Assembly: GCA_000733915.1 (NCBI GenBank)
Contig: JPOM01000001.1
Span: 2,046,001-2,110,000 of the forward strand
Direction: 5' to 3'
Source: Caulobacteraceae bacterium PMMR1
GTDB lineage: Bacteria; Pseudomonadota; Alphaproteobacteria; Caulobacterales; Caulobacteraceae
DNA: 64,000 bases
Shown here: piece after piece, positions 38,339 through 64,000 of the stretch
Position numbering within the stretch: the stretch's first letter is position 1
Layout: each line of letters starts with the position of its first letter
Notes under the pieces: model-generated
What the model was told of the DNA's origin: nothing
The model's database searches: none
What the model saw: only the letters and a program-made list of their open reading frames with translations
Made by a program: the position numbers and the translations under genes

Positions 38339-41300
38339 TCAGGGCGGGGCGTCGGTGCGAACCGTCCGGCGCGCCGCCGCCCCCCAGCCGACGATGGCCG
38401 AGAGCTGGGCGACCTCCAGCGTCACGACAGCGGGCAGGCGGGCGGCGTCGACGGCGCTGAGGATCAGGGACGGCGCGTCGGTCTGGACCTCGTTCAGCGG
38501 GGTCGCGCCGTCGAACAGGCGCACGCGATAGCGCTCGACCTCCTCCGACAGCGGCGCGTCGCCCCCGTCCCAGGCGTCCCCGTGCAGGCGCGTGCGGCGG
38601 ATCCAGCTCAACGCCAGACGCCCGTCGGGCGCGCGGGCCGCCGTCAGATGCGCCGGCGCCAGCGGCCGCCAGGCGATCCCCTGCCAGGCGAAGGCGGCCT
38701 GCGCACTGTTGAGCGCCGTAGGCTGAAGGCCCGCGGGGCGGCGCGCCAGTTAAGCGGCAGGCCGCGCTCGGACTGGGCGAGCTCGGCGCGGGCGAGGGGT
38801 CCGTCCAGCACGACCACCGCCGCCCCCGCAGGGACCCGGGCCGCCATGTCCGCCTCCGTCCCGAGCTGGCCCCGCAGCAGGCGCGAGAGGGTCCAGGTCT
38901 CGGGCGCGACCAGGGCGGCGGCGGCGAACTGCAGCACCTCCCAGGCGCCGGCGGGGGTCTGGATCGCGAGCGCATTGGCGCCGGCCAGCACCTCGGCGTC
39001 CGCTCGGCTCTGCAGCGACGCCCCGCCCTCGACGCGCACGGTGAGCCGGGTCGCCGCGTCCCAGCGCCAGGGCGGCGCGGAGGGCAGGTCGCTCACGCTC
39101 GCGCCCATCCAGGCCGGCTCGGCGATGCGGGCGCGCTCCGGGCCGCCGGGTCCTGTCTGCACCGACATGGCGCGCCAAGGCTCGGCGGCGACGGCGATCA
39201 GGGGGCGGGCGTCGTCTTCGGCCCCCGGCAGCAGCGGCAGGTCGAGCAGCGCGAAGGCCGGCGGGCCGGAGGGCCTCGGCCGGGGCCCGGACTGGAAGCC
39301 GGGGTCGCCGTCGGCCGCGACCGGCGGCTCCGCGCGGGTGAGCCGGGCGGCGGGCCGGGGCCGAGGTCCAGCCGCGTCACGCGCCAGAGCACGTCCCAGA
39401 GCGCGCCCCCGAGCGCGCCCCCGAGCGCGCCCGCCTCGCCCGGCAGGGTCACGAGGTCGCCGACCTCCAGCGCCAGGGCGGCGGCGGGGCCGAGCGCGAC
39501 TTCGGCCGCCTCGTCCTCGGCCAGCGCCCGGGCCAGCGCCCGGGCTGCGGCGGCCTGCGCCCCCGGCCGGTCGAGCGCCAGCGGCAGGTCCAGGTCGTGC
39601 ACGCCGCCGCCGCCTGCGCCCGCCTCCGCCCGCGCCTCGGCCTTCAGGGTCTGGTAGTCCGCCCCCGGATCGACCGCGCGCACGCGCACCGCGTCCGGGG
39701 TCAGGGCGGCGGCGTGGTCGTAGCGCACCGGCGGCGCGCCCGGGTCCAACCCTGCGAGGTCGGCGGCCGTCAGGCGCAGGTCCGCCGGCCGGCTCCGCCC
39801 GAGCGCCGTGATCCGCCCGCCCCGCTCCGCCATGTCGAAGGCGAAGGCGAAGGCCAGCGGCGCGATCTGCTGCGCAAGGCTCAGGGGCCGCTCCAGCACC
39901 GCGCCCTCCACCACGCCGTCTGCGCCGGCGAGATCGCACGCGCCGGGGTCGACGCCGCCCCGCGCCAGCATGGCGCCGACCAGGCTCGCCACGGGCGCTG
40001 CGCCCAGACGGCCGTTCAGCCAGTGCCCCCGCGCCCAGGCGCCCGCGTCGGCCCAGACGTCCGCCCGGGCGGGGAAGTCCGGGTAGGGCCGCGCGTCCCA
40101 GCACCAGGCGGAGAGCCCCTGCACCATCGGCCCGCCATAGACGGAGGACGTGGGATTGCCCGGCGCGCCGGGGGCGAAGTGCGCCAGGATCGCCTCCAGC
40201 GCCGCGCGCTGGCCGGCGTCGTCGCGGACGCCGGTCGAGAACGGCGGCAGGCGGCTCTCCGCGCTCTTGGGGTCCAGGAACAGGTTCGGCGCATTGGCCC
40301 CCTTGTCGATGGCCGCGCAGCCGAACTCGACCAGGCGGATCGGCTTGGAGCCCGGGACCCAGGCGGTGGGCGCGCTCTGGCGGACGCCCGCGCGGCGCTC
40401 GTGGTGCGGGTTGGACCACCAGGCCGCGAGGTCCTTGGGCCGGAACACCCAGGGCTCGCCATAGGCGCCGTCGGCGATCGGGGTGCGGCGCTGGGCTGCG
40501 CGGTCGGCCTCGTTGGCGTAGTACCAGTCGAAAGCCTCGCCGCCGGCGATCCCCGCCGCGAGATAGGCTCGGTCGCGCGGCCCGCGGAAGCCCGCGACAG
40601 CGTCGCGCTCGCCCGGCGCGTCCCGCCAGTCCGTGATCGGCGGATACCAGTCGACGCCGACGAAATCGACGGCCGGGTCGGCCCAGAGGGGATCGAGGTG
40701 ATAGCGCACGTCCCCCGAGCCGTCCGGAGGCTGATGGCCGAAGTACTCGCTCCAGTCGGCGGCGTAGGCCACGGCTGTGGCCGGCCCGAGCATGGCCTTC
40801 ACATCCCGCGCCAGGCGCACCAGCTCGTCCACCGCCGGATAGCCGTCCGCGGCGTCGCGCAGGGTCGTCAGCCCCCGGAATTCCGAGCCGATCAGGACCG
40901 CGTCCGCCCCGCCCGCCGCCTGCGCCAGGGCCGAAAGGTGCAGCACGCAGCGCCGCCAGCTCCACTCCGGCGGCCCGGCATAGGCGACCTCGCCGGCCCT
41001 GACCGTGAAGTCGCCCGGGGCGGCGGACCCGAAGAAGGCGGCGACCTCGGCCCGCGCGCCCGCCGTGCGGTCCGACCCGGTGATCCGCCCCCGCCAGGGG
41101 TAGGCCGCCTGCTCCGCCCCGCCGTAGGGATCGGGCAAGCCGTTGCCGGGCGCGATGTCCATCATCAGGAACGGATAGAGGGTGACGCGCCAGCCCCGCG
41201 CCTTCAGGGCCGCGATGGCCTGGAGCACGGCTTCGTCCGCCGGCGTGCCGCCATAGGCGGGGCCGCCCGCGGCGGTGCGGGAGACGAGATGCGCATCCTC

Positions 41301-42215
41301 CCGCCCCACGCCGCCGGCGCGCCAGGTCACGGGCGCGGTCGCCTTCTCGGCCTCCTCCACGCCCGGGCGCACCTGGCAGCGGCCGGCCCGCAGGTCGGTC
41401 CCGAACCAGGCCACCACCAGCGACACCTCGGTCAGATTGGGCAGGGCGGCGGCGAGCTGGTCGAGGCTGACCTCCAGGTCCGCGCGCCCCTGGCCGGAGT
41501 GGACGTTCTCCGCGGTGGAGCGGGTCAGGCCGTCGCGGCGGAGCACGGGGCCGGTCGCATAGACGAACTCTCCCGCGCCCGGGATCAGGCACACGCCCGT
41601 CAGCCGGTCCTCCAGCGCCGCAGGCGCCCCGTCCCAGCGGGGCCGGCGGAGGATCTCGACATTGATATCGGGGGGCCGGTCGCCATAGGCGTCGAGGGCT
41701 AAGTCCTCGAAAACCAGATAGGCGAGACCGCGGTAGGCGGGGGACGTCCCCTCCACCGCCTCGATCAGCGGATCGGGCGCCTGGTCCTCCGTCCCCAGAT
41801 GAACACGCCAGGTCACGCCGGACAGGTCCATCGCCTTGCCGTTGGCCCAGATGCGGCCCACCCCGTCGATCGGCCCCTCGCAGAGTCCGATGGCGAAGCT
41901 GAGCGAATAGCTATAGGCATAGGTCGTCGGCCCGCCCTTGGAGCCGGAGGTCTGGCGCGCGACCCGCCGCTCCTTGAAGCGCGCCGCCCAGATCACCTGG
42001 CCGCCGACGCGGGCCCGGCCAAAGGCGGCCGCGATCGGCTCGCCCTCGGCCACCGCGGTCAGCTGCAGGCCCTGCAGCCGCCGGCCGACCTCGCGGTCCG
42101 GCTTGAGCGCGTTCAAGGCGGCGTGGTCGATGGCGCGGCCGATGCGGCCGCCGATCGTGCGCCCGACCGGGCCGCCGATGGCCTCGCCCGCGGCGGACAG
42201 AATTACGTGGGCCAT
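38339..42215 (-). CDS. GTA/phage host-specificity tail-tip protein (gp15-like), two apparent frameshifts
   Basis: Similar to the large terminal gene of Rhodobacter-type gene transfer agent clusters. It starts MAHVILSAAGEAIGGPVGRT, as in that family, and contains a TIM-barrel-like region (DFVGVDWYPPITDWRD, AWCWDARPYPDFPARADVWA) followed by the C-terminal tail-tip domains. The reading frame is lost twice, near 39346-39363 and 38728-38737. Each time it resumes in the frame expected after one missing base, once in LTRAEPPVAADGDPGF and once in LNSAQAAFAWQGIAW. Restored length is about 1,292 residues, close to the Rhodobacter homologue's roughly 1,300. A GALGGALGGAL stretch is coded by a 12-bp tandem repeat. 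Confidence 0.82.
39399..39432. repeat. 12-bp tandem repeat inside the gp15-like gene
   Basis: Nearly three copies of GAGCGCGCCCCC in tandem, encoding the Gly-Ala-Leu-Gly repeats of the tail-tip protein. Slippage here would change the protein by four residues without shifting frame. Confidence 0.8.
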
Positions 42216-42216
42216 C

Positions 42217-42678
42217 TCATGGCGCTCCGGGGGGCTGAGAGGCGGGCCAGGCGAAGGCGGCGACGAGGCGGCGCGACCACCAGGCGCCCAGCCAGCTCTC
42301 CACCACCGCGCGGCCCCAGTAGGCGTGGATCATGCGGCCGTGCGGGTCGCGCGCGTCGGGCAGGGCCGACAGAAGGCCGCAGTGGCGCGCGGGCGCCCGC
42401 GCCTGCATGCGGAACAGGAGCACGTCGCCGGGCTGAAGCCCGCTCAGCGGCCGCGGCGGGAACCAGCGCGCGGCGGCCTCCAGCAGCGGCTCGCCCCGCC
42501 CTGCCTCGGCCCAGTCCGGGCGATAGGGCGGCGGCGCCTCCGGCTCCACGCCGTAGAGCGCGCGCCAGACGCCCCGCACCAGGCCCAGGCAGTCGCAGCC
42601 CGCGCCCCGCACGCTCGCCTGGTGGCGGTAGGGGGTGCCAAGCCAGAGCCGCGCCTCCGCAAGCGCAGACGCGTTCAT
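42217..42678 (-). CDS. GTA/phage tail cell-wall peptidase, NlpC/P60 family (gp14-like)
   Basis: A 153-residue cysteine peptidase that probably cuts peptidoglycan during DNA entry. The nucleophile is in GAGCDCLGLVRG (Cys30). Candidate catalytic histidines are in ARHCGLL and GRMIHAYWGRAVVE, and LQPGDVLLFRM is typical of NlpC/P60 domains. Its ATG overlaps the stop of the DUF2163 gene (ATGA), and its own stop lies one base before the gp15-like start, so translation is coupled. This is the position of gp14 in GTA clusters. Confidence 0.9.
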   Translation of the reverse strand: MNASALAEARLWLGTPYRHQASVRGAGCDCLGLVRGVWRALYGVEPEAPPPYRPDWAEAGRGEPLLEAAARWFPPRPLSGLQPGDVLLFRMQARAPARHCGLLSALPDARDPHGRMIHAYWGRAVVESWLGAWWSRRLVAAFAWPASQPPGAP

Positions 42679-43334
42679 CGCCGGCTCCCGCCGTCGTTGG
42701 CCTCGCCCTGGGCCGGAACAGCCGCGAGGAAGTCGTCGCCGGGCAGGTCGGGGAAGCCGCGGAAGTTCGCCGCGTTCTCGAACCGCTCGCGGCAGATGGC
42801 GAAGCGCTTGTCGCAGGCTGCGCCGGCGAACCTGGGATCGGCGAGGTCCACGCGGCAGCGCGCATCGCCGAGCTCGGCGTCGCAGAGGCGGCCGTAGGCG
42901 CGCCCGACCCGCCTCTGCAGCGGGGCCAGCGGCCCGGCCAGGGTCGCGCGCCAGCCCTGGCCGTCGCGGCGCAGGCGGGCGATCGTCCCCTCCCCGAGGC
43001 TGACGCGCTGGGTCGGGTCCGACCAGTCCACCCGCCAGGCCTGCACCCGGGCGCCGTCATAGAGGCCGGCCGCGAGATCGGCGTCGGTCACCGCCTCGGC
43101 CGCCAGCGTCCCCAGCACCTGCGCCTCCCCCGCCTGGCCCAGGCGGCCGCTCGCGCCCTGCGGGCTGAGGCCCGAAGAGGGATCGCAGACGACGCCGTCC
43201 AGGCCGAGCGGCCGGTCGTGGTCGGTGAAGCCGAGCCTGCGCCCGTCCTTGCGCGTCAGGATCCAGCAGGTCGCCAGCCTCGCCGCCCCGCCCTGCAGCG
43301 CCGCGCGCATCGCCTCCGGCACGGGCCGGCTCAA
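42675..43334 (-). CDS. GTA/phage tail protein, DUF2163 family (gp13-like)
   Basis: Opens with WILTRKDGRRLGFTDHD, the DUF2163 hallmark, and ends with CDKRFAICRERFENAANFRG followed by FPDLPGDD, the C-terminal iron-sulfur-type domain of Rhodobacter gp13. A TTG at 43334 overlapping the previous stop (TTGA) is the best start; an ATG eight codons in is possible. At 219 residues it is about 70 shorter than I recall for the Rhodobacter protein. The region between DARCRVDL and AACDKRF that normally holds an insert is only a few residues long. It couples to the NlpC/P60 gene through an ATGA overlap. Confidence 0.85.
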   Translation of the reverse strand: MSRPVPEAMRAALQGGAARLATCWILTRKDGRRLGFTDHDRPLGLDGVVCDPSSGLSPQGASGRLGQAGEAQVLGTLAAEAVTDADLAAGLYDGARVQAWRVDWSDPTQRVSLGEGTIARLRRDGQGWRATLAGPLAPLQRRVGRAYGRLCDAELGDARCRVDLADPRFAGAACDKRFAICRERFENAANFRGFPDLPGDDFLAAVPAQGEANDGGSRR

Positions 43335-43975
43335 GGGCGCACCTCGATCAGGGTGAACGGCGCCACCTCGGCGCGGTCCAGCGAGTGCAGGGTCAGCGCC
43401 GGCGCCTCCGCCTCCAGGCGGACCGCCGTATCGAAGCGGAAGCCGGCGGTGATCGCCGCCCCCGCCGCAGGCGCCGCGGCCAGGGTCACGCGCCCGGAAA
43501 CGGAGTCGGCGGCGAAGGCGCTCGCGTCGAGCTCCGCGCCGTCCACCGCCACCCGCACGCTGCCCGCCACCGGCTTGGCGATCGGGCGGAGGTAGACGTC
43601 CTCGCCCGCCCCATAGGCCTTGGCGAGGGAAAAGAGGCGCGTCGCGCCGTCGCCGGTCCCGATCCGCTGGTCCTGCGGCGTCACGCGGCATCCCGGGGCG
43701 GCGGAGGCCTCGTCGGTCGGGTCGCGCAGGCGGAAGCCCTGCAGCCGTCCTCGCCGCGCCTCGAAGAAGGCGAGCAGCGCCGCGCCGTCCGCCAGCGGCA
43801 GGACGCGCGGGCCGATGCGGAAGCGCCGCCGCCCGTCCGCCCAGGGCGCGATGCGGCTTTCCGCTCCGGACGCCAGGGCCGTCACGGCGACGGCGCGCTC
43901 GAGGCTGACCGTCGCGCCGGGCAGCAGGCGCGCCCAGAGGTCGTCGGGCAGGCTCGCTTCGGCGAAGGACCTCAC
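43331..43975 (-). CDS. GTA/phage distal tail protein, DUF2460 family (gp12-like)
   Basis: A 214-residue baseplate/distal-tail protein. It has the DUF2460 features: a start region SFAEASLPDDLW, the core WADGRRRFRIG with FFEARRGRLQGFRLRDPTD, and the pair YLRPIAKPVAGSVRVAVDG and TLAAAPAAGAAITAGFRFD near the C-terminus. It starts at GTG 43975 overlapping the stop of the upstream ORF (GTGA), even though three tail genes normally lie between them. Length matches the Rhodobacter homologue. Confidence 0.88.
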   Translation of the reverse strand: MRSFAEASLPDDLWARLLPGATVSLERAVAVTALASGAESRIAPWADGRRRFRIGPRVLPLADGAALLAFFEARRGRLQGFRLRDPTDEASAAPGCRVTPQDQRIGTGDGATRLFSLAKAYGAGEDVYLRPIAKPVAGSVRVAVDGAELDASAFAADSVSGRVTLAAAPAAGAAITAGFRFDTAVRLEAEAPALTLHSLDRAEVAPFTLIEVRP

Positions 43976-44315
43976 GCCGCCCTCGGCAGCGCGGTGGCGG
44001 CGCGGCGCGGCTGCGCCAGGCCGATGCGCATCAGGGCGAGCCAGCTCCCGCCCGGGCCGGCCACGGCGTCGCGATAGAGCACGCGCAAGCGGCTCCCCAG
44101 CGCGTCCGCCCCCTCCAACGCGGCGGCGGCGGCGGCGGCCAGGGCGCGGGCGTCGCTGCGGTCGGCTCCGCGCAGGCGCACCGTGACGCTGGCCGCGAGG
44201 CGGTCGTGCCCGGCGTCGGGGCCGAGGCTGAGCGCCGGCGCAGGGGGCGGCGGCTGGCCAGCAGGGGCTGAAGGCGCAGCACGACGGCTGCGGCCAGGGC
44301 GGAGGAGGCGGACAT
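43972..44315 (-). CDS. Short gp8-like (DUF3168-type) head-tail protein, one apparent frameshift
   Basis: The ATG at 44315 begins MSASSALAAAVVLRLQPLLA. The frame is lost near 44243-44256 and continues, as if one base were missing, with PALSLGPDAGHDRLAASVTV, RLRGADRSDARALAAAAAAALEGA and SRLRVLYRDAVAG to a stop at 43972. Restored length is about 114 residues. Its position and pattern (short helix, LGPD with DRL strand, long Ala helix, then a strand) resemble gp8/DUF3168 of GTA clusters, but similarity is weak. It is the only ORF between the gp6-like and gp12-like genes. Confidence 0.5.
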
Positions 44316-44348
44316 GGCGGGTCCTTGCGGTCTTTTTCGGTTGCGGGG

Positions 44349-44903
44349 TCAGAGGCGGGGCAGGCGGAAGGGCGCGAGCAGGCCCTCGGCCAGGTCCGGC
44401 GGCGGCGCCGCCTCGCGGTTCAGGAAGCGCCAGGCGGCGCGGGCGACGACCGCCTGACGGAGCGGCTCCGGCGCGGGGTCGAACCCGGCCGTGTAGTCGA
44501 TCACGACCCCGCCCCCGCTCACGCCGGGATGGGGCCAGGCCTGAGCGACGGGCGCGACCCGCCCCGGTCGCCCCGCCAGGACGCGATAGCGCCGGGGATC
44601 GAGGGTCTGCGCCGCCCCGGACGGATCGGCCGCCGTGATCGTCTCGACGCTGATCAAGGGGCCGCGCAGGAGGCCGAGCGCGCCCTCCCCGTCCGCCGGG
44701 GCGAAGCCGTCGCGCACCTCGCGCCAGCGCGTCGGCGCCAGGGAGACGCCGAGCTCAGCCTCCACCCCCTCCCGCGCCGCCGTGATCAGGCCCGCGAGCA
44801 CCGCGTCCTCGGAGTCGTAGGTCAGGCGCAGCGCCGCCTTGACCTCGGCCAGGCTGACCGGCTCGGAGGGCGCCGCTGCGAGCCGCTCCAGTTGGATCGC
44901 CAT
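44349..44903 (-). CDS. Phage head-tail connector (gp6-like, phiE125 gp8 family)
   Basis: A 184-residue protein with the opening PVSLAEVKAALRLTYDSEDAVL and the helix LITAAREGVEAELG typical of the phage conserved hypothetical phiE125 gp8 family, which forms the adaptor ring under the portal. It ends with LRQAVVARAAWRFLNRE. The start lies four bases after the capsid stop. The next expected gene, the gp7 head-tail adaptor, is absent: only 33 bases separate this stop from the next ATG. Confidence 0.85.
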   Translation of the reverse strand: MAIQLERLAAAPSEPVSLAEVKAALRLTYDSEDAVLAGLITAAREGVEAELGVSLAPTRWREVRDGFAPADGEGALGLLRGPLISVETITAADPSGAAQTLDPRRYRVLAGRPGRVAPVAQAWPHPGVSGGGVVIDYTAGFDPAPEPLRQAVVARAAWRFLNREAAPPPDLAEGLLAPFRLPRL

Positions 44904-44907
44904 CGGC

Positions 44908-46125
44908 TCAGCTCGCGGCGAACTTGAGCAGCTTGATCGCGTCGAAGTTCTGCACGCCGCCGCCGACCCGCTTGGTCACGTAGAACAGCACATAGGGCTT
45001 GGCCGAGTAGGGATCGCGCAGCACGCCGAGCCCCGCCCGGTCCACGATCAGATAGCCCCGGGCGAAGTCCCCGAACGCCACGGCGAAGGCGTTTGCGCCC
45101 ACGTCGGGCATGCTCTCCACCTCGGTGACGGGATAGCCCAGCAGATTGGCGGGCTGGCCGGCGACCGCGGGCGGCGTCCAGACGTAGTTGCCGTCGCCGT
45201 CCTTGAACTTGCGCACGGCTGCGGACGTGCGCCGGTTCATCACGAAGCGGCCCTGGGCCCGGAACTCCGCCCGCGGCGCGTAGATCAGGTCGATGAGCCT
45301 GTCGGCCGGGTTCTCCGCGGGGAAGGCGCCGGCGGCCCCCGTCGCGAGGTAGCCGAGCTGGCCCCAGGCCTGGCTGGCGTCCGGCGCGGGGGTGTAGCTC
45401 AGGAAGCCCTTGGGCTTATTCGCGCCGTCGCCGTTGACGAAGGCGTCGGTCTCCTGGGCGGCGAAGGCGTCCTGGCACTCCTCGGCCAGCCAGGCTTCTA
45501 GGTTGACGAAGCCGTCGTCGAGCAGGGCCTGAGTCGCCGCGGGGCAGGCGAAAAGGTCTGCGGCCGGGAAGTCGAGCTGGTCCAGCGTCGGGGCGGTCGT
45601 CTCGGCGCGCGAGGCCGTCTCCGCCGCCCAGCCCACGACCGGGCCGGCGATGGAGACCGGCTTGCGATAAAGGCTCGTGCCGATGGTGCGCACCGTCGCG
45701 ATCTCGCGGATCGGACTGGCGTGGGTCATGCGCCGGGCGATGGCGCGCTCGACCTCCGGCGGGGCGAGGTAGCCGCCCGAGCCGCCCTCCGACAGGCCCT
45801 TCACCTCCCGCCCCGCCGGCGACTGGCCGGTGCGGAGATAGCGGGCGAAGGCCTCGCCGCCTTCGGGGGAGGACTTCACCTCGGCGCCGCCGGATAGGGC
45901 CGGGCGGTTCAGGGCGGCGGCCTGACGGTCGAGCTTCTGCTGCGCCGAGGCCAGCGCCGCGTCGATGCGGGCGACCTTCTCCTCGAGCAGGACGTCGGGG
46001 GCTGACTTGCGCTCGAGCTCGTCCAGGCGCTGGTCGTTGGCGGCCTTGAACGCCTCGAAGGCGGCGAGCAGCTCGTGCAGGGCGGCGCGGGTCTCGGGCG
46101 AGGGGGCGGCGTGCTTGGTTTCCAT
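44908..46125 (-). CDS. HK97-fold major capsid protein (gp5-like)
   Basis: A 405-residue precursor. Residues about 1-75 form a charged coiled-coil scaffolding region (EAFKAANDQRLDELERK, VARIDAALASAQQKLDRQ). The HK97 shell domain follows, with EGGSGGYLAPPEVERAIARR, the strand pair around VGWAAETASRAETT, FVNGDGANKPKGFLSY and the C-terminal AGLGVLRDPYSAKPYVLFYV. The adjacent protease gene should remove the N-terminal scaffold during head maturation. Length is close to the Rhodobacter GTA capsid precursor. Confidence 0.93.
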   Translation of the reverse strand: METKHAAPSPETRAALHELLAAFEAFKAANDQRLDELERKSAPDVLLEEKVARIDAALASAQQKLDRQAAALNRPALSGGAEVKSSPEGGEAFARYLRTGQSPAGREVKGLSEGGSGGYLAPPEVERAIARRMTHASPIREIATVRTIGTSLYRKPVSIAGPVVGWAAETASRAETTAPTLDQLDFPAADLFACPAATQALLDDGFVNLEAWLAEECQDAFAAQETDAFVNGDGANKPKGFLSYTPAPDASQAWGQLGYLATGAAGAFPAENPADRLIDLIYAPRAEFRAQGRFVMNRRTSAAVRKFKDGDGNYVWTPPAVAGQPANLLGYPVTEVESMPDVGANAFAVAFGDFARGYLIVDRAGLGVLRDPYSAKPYVLFYVTKRVGGGVQNFDAIKLLKFAAS

Positions 46126-46144
46126 GGTCGGGGTCCTTGGCGAG

Positions 46145-46579
46145 TCAGGCGGAAAGCGGGGGCGCGGCGACGCGCAGTCGCGCCGCGGGGAGCAGGGGAA
46201 AGGCGACGATCGAGACCTCGATCAGCTCGATCTCGGTCAGCACGCGCAGCCGGCCGGTGCGGTCCGGCGTGCTGCGGCGCACGTTGAAGCCGATGGACAG
46301 GCCGTCGACCGCGCCGCTCAGCACCAGGCCGGCGGCGAGGCGCGCCTCGGGCGAGGCGCCCTCGATCTGTCCACGGACGAACAGGCCTGCGGCGTCCTCG
46401 GCGACCTCGTGCCAGCGGCCGACGGGCGAGCCGGTCTCGTGCTGGAAGAACATGCCCACGGCGGAGGGCGGGCGCGCCTTCAGGCTCGCGGCGAACGCGC
46501 CCGCTGCGACCACGTCGCCGGCCAGGTCCTCGCGCCAGAACAGCGACGCATAGCCGGCGATGGGCGTCCCCGCCCTCAC
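46145..46579 (-). CDS. HK97-type prohead protease (gp4-like)
   Basis: A 144-residue serine protease of the phage prohead family, starting at GTG 46579 which overlaps the gp3.5-like stop (GTGA). It has the family start IAGYASLFWREDLAGDVVAAGAF, the His-containing GMFFQHETGSPVGRW and the serine motif DGLSIGFNVRRS, followed by LIEVSIVAFPLLPAA. It processes the capsid encoded 19 bp downstream. Confidence 0.92.
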   Translation of the reverse strand: MRAGTPIAGYASLFWREDLAGDVVAAGAFAASLKARPPSAVGMFFQHETGSPVGRWHEVAEDAAGLFVRGQIEGASPEARLAAGLVLSGAVDGLSIGFNVRRSTPDRTGRLRVLTEIELIEVSIVAFPLLPAARLRVAAPPLSA

Positions 46580-46824
46580 CGGCCGCCGCCCCGGCGGTCG
46601 AGCTTGTCCTCGATGCGGACCAGGGCCGCGCGGGTCTCCTCCGACTGCGCCTCCAGGCGGGCGAGGCGCTCGGCCACGCCGCCCTGACGCTCGATCCGGA
46701 CCTCCAGGTCCGCCAGACGCGCCGCCGCGCCCCCGGCCCAGAGCAGCACGCCCGCCGTCTGCAGCAGCAGGGCGAGCGCCAGCCCGGCCTGGCCCTTGTC
46801 GAGCTTGGGGATGTCGAGCTGCAT
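46576..46824 (-). CDS. Small GTA head-region protein (gp3.5-like) with TM helix and coiled coil
   Basis: An 82-residue protein: MQLDIPKLDKGQAG, a hydrophobic helix at about residues 15-35, then a heptad-rich coiled coil (RLADLEVRIERQGGVAERLA). It lies between portal and protease, the position of gene 3.5 in Rhodobacter-type clusters, and is coupled to both (three bases after the portal stop, GTGA overlap with the protease). Function unknown. Confidence 0.75.
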   Translation of the reverse strand: MQLDIPKLDKGQAGLALALLLQTAGVLLWAGGAAARLADLEVRIERQGGVAERLARLEAQSEETRAALVRIEDKLDRRGGGR

Positions 46825-46827
46825 GGG

Positions 46828-47997
46828 TCAGGCGCCCTGCACCGGCGTCGCGCCGAGGCCCGCCATGCGGCGGCGCTCCTCAGGCGTGAGAAAGCTCGCC
46901 GCCTCCAGACGCGCCCAAAGCGCGGCGCGCTCGTCGGACAGGGCGGGCAGCTGATCGAGGTCGGGGCGGACCTCCGCGCCGTCGAACCGCGGCCCGAGCC
47001 AAGCGCTCAGCGCCCGGCCGATCCGCTGCGCCAGCGGCGCCGCCGTCCCGCGCCAGAAGGCGGCGTTGGCCTCCTTGAAGTTGGAGTAGGTCGCGTCGCC
47101 GGGGATGCCGAGCAGGGGCGGCGGCACGCCGAACGCCAGCGCGATCTCCCGCGCCGCGATGTGCTTGCCCTGGGCGAAGTCCATGTCGGCGGGGCTGAGC
47201 GACATCGGCCGCCAGTCGAGCCCGCCCTCCAGCAGCAGCGGCCGGCCCGCGTTCGCCGTCCCGCTCTGCAGGTCCTCCAGCTCCTGCTTCAGCCGCTCGA
47301 ACTGCTCGGGCGTCAGGTGCTCGCCGCCCTGGTAGACCAGCGCGCCGGAGGGCCGCGCGGCGTTGTCGAGCAGGGCCTTGTTCCAGGCCGAGGCGGCGTT
47401 GTGCACGTCGACCGCGAAGGCGGCGGCCTGGAGCGGCGACAGGCCGTAGTGGTCGTCCGCCGGGTTGAACAGCTTCAGGTGCAGCACGGGCAGGAAGCCG
47501 TCCGCCGCCCGCGCGATGCGGACCTTGCGCCCGTCCACGCCGTAATCGTAGGCGGCGGGCCAGCCGTCCGCGCCGGGCGCCACGCTCACCCGGTCGGGGC
47601 GGAGCGCGTAGAGCGCCGTGACCGCGCCCTCGCCCGCCGCTTCCAGGTAGGCGTCGCCGAAGACGGCCAGAAGCCCGGCGAAGCGCTCGATCAGGTCGGG
47701 GCCGGTCTCCTCCGGATTCGGACGGTCGAGCAGGGCCTGCAGCGGGTGGTCCGGCGCGCGGACGCCCTTGGCGAACACCACCAGGGGCGCAGCCGCGACC
47801 GCCTCGGCGATCATGCGCACGCAGCGATAGGCGACAGGGTTGCGGCCATAGCCCTCCCGCGCCAGGGCGGAGGCGTCCCGCGCGGTCCAGGCCGGCTGGC
47901 CGGCGGCGGAGAGCGCGATCAGCCGCCGGGCGAGGCTCTTGCGCTCAGGCGGGGGCGGGGCGGCGACAGGACGTCGCCGCGCCAGGGACGCGGGCAT
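46828..47997 (-). CDS. Phage/GTA portal protein, HK97 family (gp3-like)
   Basis: A portal subunit of about 389 residues. Features: YGRNPVAYRCVRMIAEAVAAAP near the N-terminus, HPLQALLDRPNPEE, NPADDHYGLSPLQAAA, the GALVYQGGEHLTPEQFERLK helix and FGVPPPLLGIPGDATYSNFKEANAAFW, all typical of the HK97 portal family. MPASLARRRP at 47997 is the likely start; an upstream ATG at 48036 is possible. It is the first gene of the cluster. The 190 bases before it hold no coding sequence, so the terminase gene that normally precedes the portal is missing here. Confidence 0.93.
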   Translation of the reverse strand: MPASLARRRPVAAPPPPERKSLARRLIALSAAGQPAWTARDASALAREGYGRNPVAYRCVRMIAEAVAAAPLVVFAKGVRAPDHPLQALLDRPNPEETGPDLIERFAGLLAVFGDAYLEAAGEGAVTALYALRPDRVSVAPGADGWPAAYDYGVDGRKVRIARAADGFLPVLHLKLFNPADDHYGLSPLQAAAFAVDVHNAASAWNKALLDNAARPSGALVYQGGEHLTPEQFERLKQELEDLQSGTANAGRPLLLEGGLDWRPMSLSPADMDFAQGKHIAAREIALAFGVPPPLLGIPGDATYSNFKEANAAFWRGTAAPLAQRIGRALSAWLGPRFDGAEVRPDLDQLPALSDERAALWARLEAASFLTPEERRRMAGLGATPVQGA

Positions 47998-48187
47998 GCG
48001 GGGGCTCCGGACGATCGGGGCGGTCGCCGGGCCCAAGCCCGTATCGCGACCGTTCCAGCAATGTAGCGGAGCTCCGCCCGTGGAGGACTATTTTCCTAGG
48101 TTTGGTCCGCGCCGCCTCGCCCGCTCAAGGGCGCCACGCGCCGCCGGCGTGAAAAGGCTTGGACCTCTGCGCGGATCGCCCCGCAGG

Positions 48188-59745: not shown

Positions 59746-60750
59746 ATGGCCCTGCCGCCCGTCCTGCGCGACCGCCTGCGCCTGCCCGCGATCGGCTCGC
59801 CCCTGTTCATCATCAGCCATCCGGCGCTGGTGATCGCCCAGTGTACGGCGGGCGTGGTGGGCAGCTTCCCGTCGCTGAACGCGCGGCCCCTGTCGCAGCT
59901 CGACGAGTGGCTGGCCGAGATCACCGAGACCCTGGCCGACTGGGACCGCAAGCATCCGGACCGCCCCTCCGCCCCGTTCGCGGTCAACCAGATCGTGCAC
60001 AAGACCAACAACCGGCTGGAGGAGGACCTTCAGCTCTGCGTGAAATACAAGGTCCCGGTGGTGATCACCTCGCTGGGCGCCCGCACCGAGGTCAACGATG
60101 CGGTGCATTCCTACGGCGGCGTCACGCTGCACGACGTCATCGACGACCGGTTCGCCCGCAAGGCGATCGAGAAGGGCGCCGACGGCCTGATCCCGGTCGC
60201 CGCCGGAGCGGGAGGCCACGCCGGGACGCTGTCGCCTTTCGCCCTGGTGCAGGAGATCCGCGCCTGGTTCGACGGCCCGGTGGCCCTGTCCGGCGCCATC
60301 GCCACCGGCCGGGCGATCCTGGCCGCCCAGGCCATGGGCGCGGACCTCGCCTACATCGGCTCCGCCTTCATCGCGACGCAGGAGGCCCGCGCCTCGGACG
60401 GCTACAAGCAGATGATCGTGGAAAGCGGGGCTAGCGACATCCTCTACACCAACCTGTTCACCGGGGTTCACGGGAACTATCTGCGCCCCTCCGTCGTGGC
60501 CGCGGGCCTGGACCCGGAGAACCTGCCGGTCAGCGACCCATCGAAGATGAACTTCGGCTCGGGCGGCAACACCGACGCCAAGGCCTGGCGCGACATCTGG
60601 GGCTGCGGCCAGGGGATCGGGGTGCTCAAGGATGTGCCGCCCGCCGGCGTGCTGATCGAGCGCCTCATCGCCGAATACGAGCAGGCCCAGGCCGAGCTCG
60701 CCGCCAAGACGGCGCTGGTGCGGCGGGCGAGCGCAGCGCAGGCGGCATAG
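59746..60750 (+). CDS. Nitronate monooxygenase (2-nitropropane dioxygenase family)
   Basis: A 334-residue FMN enzyme of the NMO/2-nitropropane-dioxygenase family with a TIM barrel. The N-terminal LPAIGSPLFIISHPALVIAQC leads into VVGSFPSLNARPL. The FMN phosphate-binding region is GADGLIPVAAGAGGHAGT followed by ALSGAIATGRAILAAQAMGA and YIGSAFIAT. Class I enzymes detoxify nitronates such as propionate-3-nitronate. Some members are instead enoyl-reductase-like, so the substrate is uncertain. Single gene between the rpsA terminator and the phage-like operon. Confidence 0.9.
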   Translation: MALPPVLRDRLRLPAIGSPLFIISHPALVIAQCTAGVVGSFPSLNARPLSQLDEWLAEITETLADWDRKHPDRPSAPFAVNQIVHKTNNRLEEDLQLCVKYKVPVVITSLGARTEVNDAVHSYGGVTLHDVIDDRFARKAIEKGADGLIPVAAGAGGHAGTLSPFALVQEIRAWFDGPVALSGAIATGRAILAAQAMGADLAYIGSAFIATQEARASDGYKQMIVESGASDILYTNLFTGVHGNYLRPSVVAAGLDPENLPVSDPSKMNFGSGGNTDAKAWRDIWGCGQGIGVLKDVPPAGVLIERLIAEYEQAQAELAAKTALVRRASAAQAA

Positions 60751-60883: not shown

Positions 60884-61240
60884 TTGTCCGACACCGCCAC
60901 GCCCCGCCTGGGCCTGCCCTATCTCGCCGCAGCCCAGGCGCAGAAGCATGTCACCCTGAACGCGGCGCTCGCCCGGCTGGACGGGCTGGTGCAGACGGCG
61001 GTGGTCTCGCGCAGCACGGCGGTCCAGCCTGCAGCCCCCGCCGACGGCGCGCTCTACCTCCTGCCCGCCGGCGCGAGCGGCGCGGACTGGAGCGGGCGCG
61101 CCGCGGGCGACCTCGTGCGCTTCGAGGCGGGAGCCTGGAGCGGCCTGCCCGCGCTCCCGGGCCAGCTCCTCTACGTGCTCGACGAGGCCTTGCTGATGGT
61201 GCGCACCGCCGCGGGGCTGCGCAGCGTGAGCCTCGTCTGA
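60884..61240 (+). CDS. DUF2793 phage/GTA-associated protein
   Basis: A 118-residue protein starting at TTG 60884. It matches the DUF2793 pattern: TPRLGLPYLAAAQAQKHVTLNAALARLD at the N-terminus, then ALYLLPAGASGADWSGRAAGDLVRFEAGAW. The domain occurs at the start of phage tail-fibre or GTA-associated proteins in alphaproteobacteria, and I infer a structural role at the tail or fibre. Its stop overlaps the next start (TGATG), marking the first gene of a five-gene operon. Confidence 0.82.
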   Translation: MSDTATPRLGLPYLAAAQAQKHVTLNAALARLDGLVQTAVVSRSTAVQPAAPADGALYLLPAGASGADWSGRAAGDLVRFEAGAWSGLPALPGQLLYVLDEALLMVRTAAGLRSVSLV

Positions 61241-61938
61241 TGGCGCGGGTCCGCATCGAATGGGCGCGGCTGGTCCGCGGCTCCGCCCCCGGCGGGGCGA
61301 CCCTGCATCAGCCCACGGCGCTTTACGGCGCCGCCCAGGTCGTGAACGTGGGCGCGACGCCGCTCAGCGTCGGGCCGGCCCCCAGCTTCGGCGCGGATGG
61401 CGACGTCGCCCTGGCCGGCTATGCGCGGGTCACCTCGCTGAGCGGCGCAGCGCTCCTGGCCTGGGGCGCAGCGCCCTTGGCCGGCGAGGCGAGCGGCTGG
61501 CGCATCGACCCCGGCAGCCCCGCGCTCGTCCCCATTCAGCCCGGCCAGAGCCTGTCGCTGGTCGCCTGCGCCGACCCGCCCGTGGCGGCGACGGACGCAG
61601 CGGTGCAGCAGCTTCACGCCGACCTCGCGGGCGGGCTGACCGTGCTCTCGCCCCAGGCGCCGGTGACCACCGTCCGCACGGTGGCGACGGGGGTATGGCA
61701 GCGGGTCTGGGTCGCGGGCCCGGCCAAGCGGCTGATCCTGGCGCTGCCCAGCGACAGCGGCGCGAGCGGCGACTTCAGCTTCGACGCGACGCTGGCGGGC
61801 ACGACCACCTCCGCCGGGGTGCCGTTCGCGGCCGGGGCCGGGGGCAGCTTCGACTTCGCCGGCGGCGCGATCCCGTCCAGCGACCTCTACGTCAAGGCGA
61901 CCGCAGGGGCGTCCATCATCGTTCAGGTGTTCAACTGA
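61240..61938 (+). CDS. Phage/GTA-associated beta-rich protein, unknown
   Basis: A 232-residue protein with no recognised domain. It is almost entirely short beta-prone segments with Gly/Ala/Ser loops (TLHQPTALYGAAQVVNVGAT, TTSAGVPFAAGAGGSFDFAG) and lacks a signal peptide and cysteine-rich motifs. It overlaps the neighbouring starts on both sides (TGATG), so it is co-translated with the DUF2793 and SGNH genes. By composition and place it may be a fibre or head-decoration protein; this is inference only. Confidence 0.7.
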   Translation: MARVRIEWARLVRGSAPGGATLHQPTALYGAAQVVNVGATPLSVGPAPSFGADGDVALAGYARVTSLSGAALLAWGAAPLAGEASGWRIDPGSPALVPIQPGQSLSLVACADPPVAATDAAVQQLHADLAGGLTVLSPQAPVTTVRTVATGVWQRVWVAGPAKRLILALPSDSGASGDFSFDATLAGTTTSAGVPFAAGAGGSFDFAGGAIPSSDLYVKATAGASIIVQVFN

Positions 61939-63554
61939 TGTCGGGCCAGATCCTCTCCCCGCTGCCCACGCCCCGGCTGAAGAGCCGCCCGCGCCTGGCC
62001 ATCACCGGCGACAGCATCGTGCGCAACATCGCCCTGCGCGGCCCCGACATCGCCCCCTCGGCCGGCTATACCGGCAACGGCGGCTCGGGCTGGGTGACCT
62101 TCGCCGAGAGCGACGTGGGCACGCCCGCGGGCCAGGGCGCGCTGGCCTGGACCGCGGCGACGCGGAGCTTCACCTGGGCGGCGTTCGGCGAGACCGCCGG
62201 TCCGCCGGTGACGATTACCAGCTCGGGCCTTTATGACGTCTACTCCTCCGGCGGCACGTGCATCACCCTCGGCGTCCAGGCCGATCACGCGTCCCTGAGC
62301 GACGTCACCCTCACGCCCACGGTCTCGAACCTGATCTTGCGCCGGCGCAACAGCTATGGCTGGGCGACGGCGCTGCAGTGCCTCTGCCGCGCGGGCTTCG
62401 AGATCGACCGCTGGGGCCTGGCCGGAGGCCAGACCAGCCACATCGCCGACATGGTGCGCCGCCAGATCGCGACCTCGCCGGACCTGGCCGGCATCGACGC
62501 CGTCGTCGATCTGAGCGGGACCAACGACATCGGCGCAGGCGTCGCCGCCGCCGCCGCAGAGGCCGCGCACGTGGACCTGATCCGCCAGCTGGCGGGCCTG
62601 GGCAAGCCCGTCTTCGTGCTCCCGATCCTGCCCCGCAGCGTGGGCAACGAGGGCGCGAGCGGCCAGGCCAAGCTGCAGCACCTGAACCGCGTGCGCGCCC
62701 GGGAGGCCGCCAAGTACGCCAACGTCGCCTTCCTGCCGGTGCACACCGCCTGCACCCCGCTTGCGGCGACCAGCGCCTTCCTCGCGGCGGGCGACAGCCC
62801 CGACCAGCTGCACCCCGGCCCGGGCCTGGCCTACAAGCTCGCCCGCGCGGTGAAGCCCTATCTGCTCCAGGCCTTCCCCGGCATGGGCCGGCAGCGGACC
62901 GTCTACCCCGACATCTACGACGCGACCAACAACCCCAAGGGCAATCTGATCGCCAGCTCGGTCTCGGGCGCCGCTATGGCGGTGGCGCAGTTCGCCGGCA
63001 CGGGCGGGACTCCAGGCGCGGGCAATACGGGCCTGGCGCCCTCCGGCTGGACCGGCTCGCGCTCGGGCGCGATCAGCGCGGCCTTCTCGCGCGGGACCTG
63101 GCCGGCGGGCGACCTTGCGGCCGGGGCCAGCGACGTCTGCCAGATCGACCTCACCGGAGCCGCGGCCTCCACCGACAAGTTCACGCTCCAGCATTCCTCC
63201 GCCTTCAACGGGGTCGCCCAGGGCCAGTGGCTGCAGGCGGCGCTGGAGCTTCGGGCCTTCAACACCGTGGGCCTGCAGCAGCTGGAGCTGCAGCTCTGGT
63301 TCGGGGCCGCAGGCGGCTACGCCATCGGCAACAGCTGGAGCAACCAGTCGGGGTTCAGCGTCGGCCAGATGCTGCCGGACGGGGCCGACGAGATTCTGGT
63401 GATCGAGACCCCGCCGTTCCAGGTTCCCGCCGGGTTCAGCGGCCCGACCCTGTCCCTGTTCGCCTCGACCACCGCCGGCGGTCGCGCCTCCATCCAGCTG
63501 CTGTGGGCGGATCTGCGCATCGTCGATGCGCCCACCCGGCGAAAAGCGGTGTGA
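61938..63554 (+). CDS. SGNH-hydrolase tail-associated protein
   Basis: A 538-residue protein. Residues about 20-310 carry the four SGNH blocks: GDS (24-26) in AITGDSIVRN, a Gly in GLAGGQTSHI, GTND (194-197) in LSGTNDIGAG, and DxxH (289-292) in SPDQLHPG. The remaining 230 residues are beta-rich (QLELQLWFGAAGGYAIGNSW, QIDLTGAAAS) and could bind a receptor or carbohydrate. Phage-borne SGNH esterases deacetylate surface polysaccharides. It overlaps both neighbours (TGATG), in the middle of an operon with holin and endolysin. Confidence 0.85.
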   Translation: MSGQILSPLPTPRLKSRPRLAITGDSIVRNIALRGPDIAPSAGYTGNGGSGWVTFAESDVGTPAGQGALAWTAATRSFTWAAFGETAGPPVTITSSGLYDVYSSGGTCITLGVQADHASLSDVTLTPTVSNLILRRRNSYGWATALQCLCRAGFEIDRWGLAGGQTSHIADMVRRQIATSPDLAGIDAVVDLSGTNDIGAGVAAAAAEAAHVDLIRQLAGLGKPVFVLPILPRSVGNEGASGQAKLQHLNRVRAREAAKYANVAFLPVHTACTPLAATSAFLAAGDSPDQLHPGPGLAYKLARAVKPYLLQAFPGMGRQRTVYPDIYDATNNPKGNLIASSVSGAAMAVAQFAGTGGTPGAGNTGLAPSGWTGSRSGAISAAFSRGTWPAGDLAAGASDVCQIDLTGAAASTDKFTLQHSSAFNGVAQGQWLQAALELRAFNTVGLQQLELQLWFGAAGGYAIGNSWSNQSGFSVGQMLPDGADEILVIETPPFQVPAGFSGPTLSLFASTTAGGRASIQLLWADLRIVDAPTRRKAV

Positions 63555-63766
63555 TGCGGACCTGGCTCCCCCTCGCCTGGCGGGCGTTCCGCGGCGGCTG
63601 GCGGCCGGCGCTCGGCTGGTCGCTGAGCCCGGCGGTGCTCTACGCCTTCGTGGTCGGCCCGGCCCTGCGACGGCCGGCGGACGCCCACGAGCTCACCGCC
63701 CTGGTCGGGCTGGCCGCCGCGCACCTGATCGCCCGGACAGTAGAGAAGACGCGAGGCCTGCCATGA
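63554..63766 (+). CDS. Three-TM-type holin (GTA/phage release holin)
   Basis: A 70-residue membrane protein with at least two hydrophobic segments (WSLSPAVLYAFVVGPAL, LTALVGLAAAHLIA), an N-terminal amphipathic start and the end RTVEKTRGLP. The GWxL...Y.FVV.P...ELTALVGLA...RTVEK..G pattern matches what I recall of the 3-TM holins associated with gene-transfer-agent release. Its start overlaps the SGNH stop and its stop overlaps the endolysin start (ATGA), the classical holin-endolysin pair. Confidence 0.75.
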   Translation: MRTWLPLAWRAFRGGWRPALGWSLSPAVLYAFVVGPALRRPADAHELTALVGLAAAHLIARTVEKTRGLP

Positions 63767-64000
63767 GCCTGGACGCGCTGAAGACGCGGCTGATCGCCGA
63801 GGAGGGCCTCCGGCTGAAGCCCTATCGCGATGGGGCGGGCAAGCTGACGCTCGGGGTCGGGCGCAACCTGGACGACGTCGGGATCAGCCGGGAGGAGGCC
63901 CTGATGCTGCTCGACCACGACCTGGCGCGCACGGCGGCCGAGGTGGACCGGCGCTGGCCCTGGGCGGTGGAGCTCGACGCGATCCGGCGCGAGGCGCTGA
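63763..64000 (+). CDS. GH24 (T4-lysozyme-type) endolysin, 5' part
   Basis: The gene runs off the right edge. The visible 79 codons carry the complete GH24 catalytic triad spacing: Glu14 (EEG), Asp23 (YRD) and Thr29 (KLTLGVGRNL), equivalent to Glu11, Asp20 and Thr26 of T4 lysozyme. ISREEALMLLDHDLARTAAEV is also typical. No signal sequence is seen, so export probably depends on the adjacent holin. Confidence 0.9.
   Translation, partial: MSLDALKTRLIAEEGLRLKPYRDGAGKLTLGVGRNLDDVGISREEALMLLDHDLARTAAEVDRRWPWAVELDAIRREAL

What the first reader, a model, noticed from the sequence alone, without database searches (positions are those of the whole stretch)
60884..64000. Separate adhesion/lysis operon near the GTA-like cluster
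Five genes (DUF2793, unknown beta-rich, SGNH esterase, 3-TM holin, GH24 endolysin) are joined by TGATG or ATGA overlaps. In Rhodobacter the GTA lysis genes and fibres are encoded apart from the main cluster, and the holin here resembles the GTA-release type. The operon may therefore supply release and receptor-binding functions to the nearby truncated cluster. It could equally be one end of a prophage that continues past the right edge.
Basis: inference. Interest (0 to 1): 0.65.

Follow-up and report, generated by a model that had tools for sequence, protein, structure and literature searches.

The report
Detached GTA fibre-and-lysis operon
Next to ordinary housekeeping genes this bacterium keeps a seven-gene block, descended from a domesticated virus (a gene transfer agent, GTA), that pairs the particle's attachment fibre with a complete cell-bursting kit; relatives carry comparable blocks at their fibre locus, which suggests how many of them release their DNA-carrying particles, although the particle genes in this strain are broken.

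Summary
The operon is real and larger than reported. Seven genes (60884-64749) are chained by TGATG/ATGA overlaps: DUF2793 fibre anchor, beta-rich protein, SGNH esterase, 2-TM holin, GH24 endolysin, Rz i-spanin and an embedded +1-frame Rz1 o-spanin. Housekeeping genes follow, so it is not a prophage end. Its first gene is the unlinked tail-fibre gene of RcGTA-type gene transfer agents: DUF2793 occurs once per genome, in 51 of 52 Caulobacteraceae with a GTA capsid and 5 of 67 without, and in many genera directly behind the same nitronate monooxygenase gene. Lysis genes recur behind it: GH24 in a sister genus (orthologous), a holin-like protein plus M15 endolysin in Brevundimonas (23 of 25 loci), another holin-like family in three genera. 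None was recognised in Caulobacter proper, where C. crescentus uses LypABC instead. In this genome the core GTA is decayed: g9-g11 missing, g8 and g15 frameshifted, terminase 100 kb away and frameshifted. I found no prior description of lysis genes at the Caulobacteraceae GTA fibre locus in the papers searched.

The parts
60884..61240 (+). A: DUF2793 fibre-anchor protein, 118 aa (TTG start); anchor domain only, relatives have about 240-555 aa
   Evidence: PF10983 5.9e-21; 71% identical to the G027 fibre at the same locus; directly downstream of nitronate monooxygenase as in relatives
61240..61938 (+). B: beta-rich protein, 232 aa; N-terminal half conserved at the same locus in G027 and G011, C-terminal half different; likely fibre adaptor or receptor-binding part (inferred)
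   Evidence: 49.6% and 40.3% identity over residues 1-123 and 1-128; no Pfam or PHROG hit; no phage-record match; AlphaFold beta-rich but mean pLDDT 52
61938..63554 (+). C: SGNH/GDSL esterase with C-terminal domain, 538 aa; GDS, GTND and DxxH motifs present; likely receptor-sugar deacylase on the fibre (inferred)
   Evidence: PF13472 5.4e-11; phrog_6102 lipase 8.2e-13; motifs read in the translation
63554..63766 (+). D: holin-like, 70 aa, two hydrophobic segments
   Evidence: phrog_3427 holin 1.9e-4; PF11351 partial, below cut-off; hydropathy
63763..64000 (+). E: GH24 endolysin, 139 aa, continues to 64182 beyond the window. Further operon genes outside the window: F Rz-type i-spanin 64179-64643 (154 aa, one N-terminal TM) and G Rz1-type o-spanin lipoprotein 64441-64749 (102 aa, begins inside F in the +1 frame, lipobox LLSTAC)
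   Evidence: E: PF00959 9.5e-16; E14/D23/T29 invariant across four fibre-locus GH24 proteins with T4-lysozyme spacing; groups with the G027 fibre-locus GH24, support 97/91. F: phrog_2536 Rz-like spanin 0.036, weak, TM at 8-26. G: PF23793 LysC 5.9e-9, phrog_456 Rz-like spanin 2.3e-10
59746..60750 (+). Nitronate monooxygenase gene: the conserved upstream neighbour that marks the locus in relatives
   Evidence: PF03060; same neighbour in most Caulobacter-type loci
38339..48036 (-). Decayed GTA core: portal, g3.5, protease, capsid, connector, g8 (frameshifted), [g9-g11 missing], g12, g13, g14, g15 (two frameshifts)
   Evidence: NCBIfam hits; comparison with intact relatives; no tail tube in the genome

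Best explanation
This is the unlinked tail-fibre locus of an RcGTA-type gene transfer agent, extended into a fibre-plus-lysis operon. In a GTA-producing ancestor the DUF2793 protein would have attached to the particle and, with B and the SGNH esterase, formed the receptor-binding and receptor-trimming end. The holin would have permeabilised the inner membrane and let the GH24 enzyme cut peptidoglycan, and Rz/Rz1 would have disrupted the outer membrane. Shown here: gene content, synteny, co-occurrence with GTA capsids, recurrence of lysis genes at the fibre locus in other genera, and an orthologous endolysin in the nearest genus. Inferred: the biochemical roles, co-expression with the GTA, and use of B and C in the fibre. 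In this genome the core particle genes are decayed, so the operon is probably a recently orphaned part of a dying GTA.
For: DUF2793 occurs in 56 of 119 family genomes, one copy each; 51 of 52 genomes with a GTA-type capsid have it, against 5 of 67 without (Fisher 1.3e-26, phylogeny not corrected). It sits directly behind nitronate monooxygenase in most Caulobacter-like genera. DUF2793 is the published RcGTA tail fibre family (PMC10883770), and the C. crescentus fibre gene is unlinked and induced with the GTA (PMC9632790). At the fibre locus of relatives: GH24 and B in G027, GH24 in a strain labelled C. segnis, a 91-aa TM protein plus M15 endolysin (phrog_465, 6e-61) in 23 of 25 Brevundimonas-type loci, with 12 genomes at 1.7-2.0 kb in an independent search, and a phrog_6637 holin-like protein in three genera. 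Housekeeping genes flank both sides. Lysis genes also follow DUF2793 in 36 of 80 viral contigs (34 of the 48 with more than 1.8 kb downstream), which gives a plausible ancestral order.
Against: The core GTA here cannot make a normal particle, so present function is doubtful. No conserved promoter or IHF-like element was found upstream of A. Genes C, D, F and G were not found at the locus in relatives, so the full cassette is specific to this genome. A has lost its C-terminal half. Co-occurrence counts are not independent along the phylogeny, and no expression data exist.
Confidence: 0.83

Rival explanations
1. The operon is the end of, or a leftover from, an unrelated prophage (fibre plus lysis genes) that happened to insert here.
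For: In viral contigs DUF2793 genes are often followed by lysis genes; the GH24 is phage-type (50% identical to a Marinobacter phage lysozyme).
Against: No other phage gene lies near it and housekeeping genes follow. The fibre gene sits at the same place in many genera, one copy per genome, tied to GTA capsids. B and GH24 are shared at this locus with the nearest genus.
Confidence: 0.05
2. The fibre gene A is GTA-derived, but the B-G part is a foreign replacement brought in from a phage and has no release role for the GTA.
For: C, D, F and G have no counterpart at the locus in relatives; endolysin types differ between genera (GH24, M15, GH108), so cassettes are swapped.
Against: B and GH24 are shared with G027 at the same locus and the GH24 pair groups together (97/91). 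All genes are translationally chained, and lysis-type genes recur at the fibre locus in several genera, which suggests selection for their presence there.
Confidence: 0.1
3. The operon supplies fibre and lysis to a GTA that still works in this strain, with the missing genes supplied elsewhere (compatible with the best explanation on ancestry, differing on present function).
For: A terminase copy exists 100 kb away, and a DUF6456 (GafA/GafZ-type) gene remains. Operon ORFs are intact.
Against: No tail-tube gene anywhere by two searches, one with a working control; the terminase is frameshifted at Walker A, g8 and g15 are frameshifted, and the DUF6456 match is eroded.
Confidence: 0.05

Closest known systems
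RcGTA unlinked loci of Rhodobacter capsulatus (rcc00171 tail fibre; rcc00555/00556 lysis genes)
   Same: DUF2793 tail fibre encoded away from the head-tail cluster; phage-type endolysin and holin for release
   Different: In R. capsulatus the fibre and the lysis genes are at separate loci; here they are one operon, with a GH24 enzyme, a spanin pair and an added esterase
Caulobacter crescentus GTA fibre ccna_02456 and LypABC release system
   Same: Caulobacteraceae DUF2793-type fibre locus, unlinked, induced by GafYZ in C. crescentus
   Different: C. crescentus has no holin or endolysin and lyses through a CARD-NLR-like system (PMC13236601); here the locus has a full classical lysis cassette
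Lambda-type holin-endolysin-Rz/Rz1 lysis cassette
   Same: Order holin, endolysin, Rz, and Rz1 starting inside Rz in the +1 frame
   Different: Sits in a chromosomal GTA fibre operon without a phage genome; Rz1 extends beyond Rz
Alphaproteobacterial (pro)phages with DUF2793 fibre followed by lysis genes
   Same: Fibre followed by endolysin (34 of 48 viral loci with more than 1.8 kb downstream)
   Different: There the module is part of a phage genome; here it stands alone at a conserved chromosomal site

Membership tests
RcGTA-type unlinked tail-fibre locus | DUF2793 fibre-anchor domain | tested here: met
   PF10983 5.9e-21, aligned from the start to about residue 112 with other fibres
RcGTA-type unlinked tail-fibre locus | Orthologous position in GTA-bearing relatives and co-occurrence with the GTA core | tested here: met
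   Behind nitronate monooxygenase in many genera; 51 of 52 capsid genomes carry it
RcGTA-type unlinked tail-fibre locus | C-terminal receptor-binding half of the fibre protein | tested here: not met
   A stops at residue 118 where relatives have about 240-555 aa; B and C may replace it. This bears on function rather than on ancestry.
RcGTA-type unlinked tail-fibre locus | Co-expression under GafY/GafZ or GafA | not testable with these tools
   No expression data; no shared promoter element seen
Functional RcGTA-type gene transfer agent in this strain | Intact terminase, capsid, tail tube, tape measure and baseplate genes | tested here: not met
Lambda-type four-gene lysis cassette | Holin, endolysin, i-spanin, o-spanin in order | tested here: met
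   Endolysin and o-spanin above Pfam cut-off; holin and i-spanin only weak profile hits plus TM and position
Prophage | Integrase, repressor or head genes next to the operon | tested here: not met
   Housekeeping genes on both sides
PF11351 GTA_holin_3TM | Three TMs and a score over the gathering cut-off | tested here: not met
   16.4 bits against 24.8; two hydrophobic segments

The most novel reading that the evidence does not exclude
Across Caulobacteraceae and some other Alphaproteobacteria, the unlinked GTA fibre locus is the particle's release locus: a fibre gene coupled to an exchangeable lysis cassette (GH24, M15 or GH108 endolysins and unrelated holin-like proteins). Caulobacter proper lost it, with LypABC taking over in some species.
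Probability: 0.55. Interest if true: 0.72.

Novelty: new variant of a known kind. Interest (0 to 1): 0.58.

Why it matters
How Caulobacteraceae GTAs leave the cell is an open question: C. crescentus has no holin or endolysin and uses LypABC, which its discoverers found complete in only 4 of 11 GTA-bearing Caulobacter species. A fibre locus that carries an endolysin in nearly every sampled Brevundimonas, and holin-like or lysozyme genes in other genera, gives named genes to delete in culturable strains. The window itself also shows a GTA caught while decaying, with the detached operon still intact.

Tried and rejected
Prophage end: rejected by flanking genes and synteny. Functional local GTA: judged unlikely from missing or broken core genes. 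Promoter and IHF-site comparison upstream of A: nothing shared with relatives. Structure of B: mean pLDDT 52, Foldseek best E 5.7e-3 to seed storage cupins, uninformative. Structure of C: mean pLDDT 35, not searched further. Esterase C in the family: only a weak C-terminal hit in one other genome. First tail-tube search with a single protein lacked a control, so it was repeated with PF06199, where the Caulobacter vibrioides control rang. Sequencing error as the cause of decay cannot explain the missing genes or the moved terminase, but single frameshifts were not checked against reads.

Full report
Location and observation. The window is bases 2,046,001-2,110,000 of a complete 2.67 Mb chromosome. 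The right edge of the window cut the operon: the endolysin ends at 64182, and two more genes follow, an i-spanin (64179-64643) and an o-spanin that begins inside it in the +1 frame and ends at 64749. The o-spanin has a lipobox and passes the Pfam cut-off for LysC, an Rz1-like family. The i-spanin call rests on an N-terminal TM, its position and a weak PHROG hit. The holin is 70 aa with two hydrophobic segments, not a full 3-TM protein.

Surroundings. Upstream are cytidylate kinase, ribosomal protein S1 and nitronate monooxygenase; downstream, on the other strand, are a 359-aa protein without a family hit, PRPP synthetase, and 3-hydroxyacyl-CoA dehydrogenase, thiolase and acyl-CoA dehydrogenase.

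Identity of the locus. DUF2793 is the family of the RcGTA tail fibre (PMC10883770), and the C. crescentus homologue ccna_02456 is unlinked and induced with the GTA (PMC9632790). In 119 genomes of the family, DUF2793 was found in 56, once in each. A GTA-type capsid (E <= 1e-80, excluding two hits under 50% identity) was found in 52; 51 of these have DUF2793. The counts are not corrected for phylogeny. The gene lies directly behind nitronate monooxygenase in G000, G011, G027 and many Caulobacter-type genomes. In Brevundimonas and in genus g14 it lies elsewhere, among other chromosomal genes.

Lysis genes at the fibre locus of relatives. G027 has fibre, B homologue, a 571-aa protein, GH24 and a small 80-aa protein. 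Its GH24 groups with the one here (97/91). A strain labelled Caulobacter segnis and Amphiplicatus metriothermophilus have a different GH24 behind the fibre. Brevundimonas-type loci have a 91-aa TM protein and an M15 endolysin (PHROG 465 endolysin, 6e-61) in 23 of 25 cases with enough sequence. By an independent genome search, 14 of 16 DUF2793-bearing genomes of that genus have the enzyme at high similarity; in 12 it is 1.7-2.0 kb from the fibre start, and in the other two it lies on a different contig. In B. halotolerans the genes overlap by 4 bases each. A holin-like family of about 170 aa (phrog_6637, function unknown) follows the fibre in genomes of three genera. Two further alphaproteobacterial MAG loci have GH108 plus an Rz-like spanin, and M15 plus a lipoprotein. 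About twenty Caulobacter loci with a 245-aa fibre had no lysis gene by these queries. The queries are limited, so unknown holins could be missed.

Release in Caulobacter. C. crescentus has no holin or endolysin (PMC9632790, PMC13236601) and lyses through LypABC, which was detected complete in 4 of 11 GTA-bearing Caulobacter species. The fibre-locus lysis genes are therefore candidates for release in other genera. This is inference; I could not test LypABC distribution.

State of the GTA in this genome. The core has portal, g3.5, protease, capsid and connector, a frameshifted g8, then g12-g15, with g15 broken by two frameshifts. Relatives have tail tube, chaperones and tape measure between g8 and g12; here they are absent. 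No tail tube was found in the chromosome, while the same search rang in Caulobacter vibrioides. The terminase is alone about 100 kb to the right, frameshifted in the Walker A region. A diverged DUF6456 gene (GafA/GafZ family, PMC9638019) remains. The fibre gene has lost its C-terminal half. The operon reading frames are intact.

Mechanism. Most likely the operon once supplied attachment (A, with B and the SGNH esterase) and release (D-G). Catalytic residues of GH24 (E14, D23, T29) are conserved with the relatives, and the esterase has its GDS, GTND and DxxH motifs. Roles are inferred from families. Whether anything still expresses the operon is unknown.

Novelty. In the literature held I found no report of lysis genes at the Caulobacteraceae GTA fibre locus. 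One paper notes rcc00171 and rcc00555 homologues next to head-tail clusters in Methylobacterium nodulans prophages (PMC11409702), which agrees with a phage origin of the fibre-lysis order. Subscription papers are not covered.

Noticed in passing
G000:C1:2212911-2214068 (-), about 103 kb right of the window: A solitary GTA terminase large-subunit gene (58% identical to that of G011) with a frameshift in the Walker A region, displaced from the GTA core and surrounded by unrelated genes.
   Followed up: yes
window 38339-48036 (-): GTA core caught while decaying: tail tube, chaperones and tape measure missing, g8 and g15 frameshifted.
   Followed up: yes
G000:C1:382576-382866 (-): A 373-aa open frame with an eroded DUF6456 match (GafA/GafZ-type GTA activator).
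   Followed up: partly
L175 8392-9211, L129, L183 and other Brevundimonas loci: Operon of fibre, 54 aa, 91-aa TM protein and M15 endolysin with 4-base overlaps (L175), just upstream of flagellin genes.
   Followed up: partly
L122, L126, L133, L107, L097: phrog_6637, a family of unknown function directly behind GTA fibre genes, with C-terminal hydrophobic segments: candidate holin.
   Followed up: partly
L124 and L138: Contigs labelled Verrucomicrobiales and Bordetella MAGs carry Caulobacteraceae-type fibre loci: probable mis-binning.
   Followed up: no
L119 against L121: Two closely similar fibre loci differ by presence or absence of GH24 between the fibre and a shared 134-aa gene: a gain or loss of the endolysin.
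   Followed up: no
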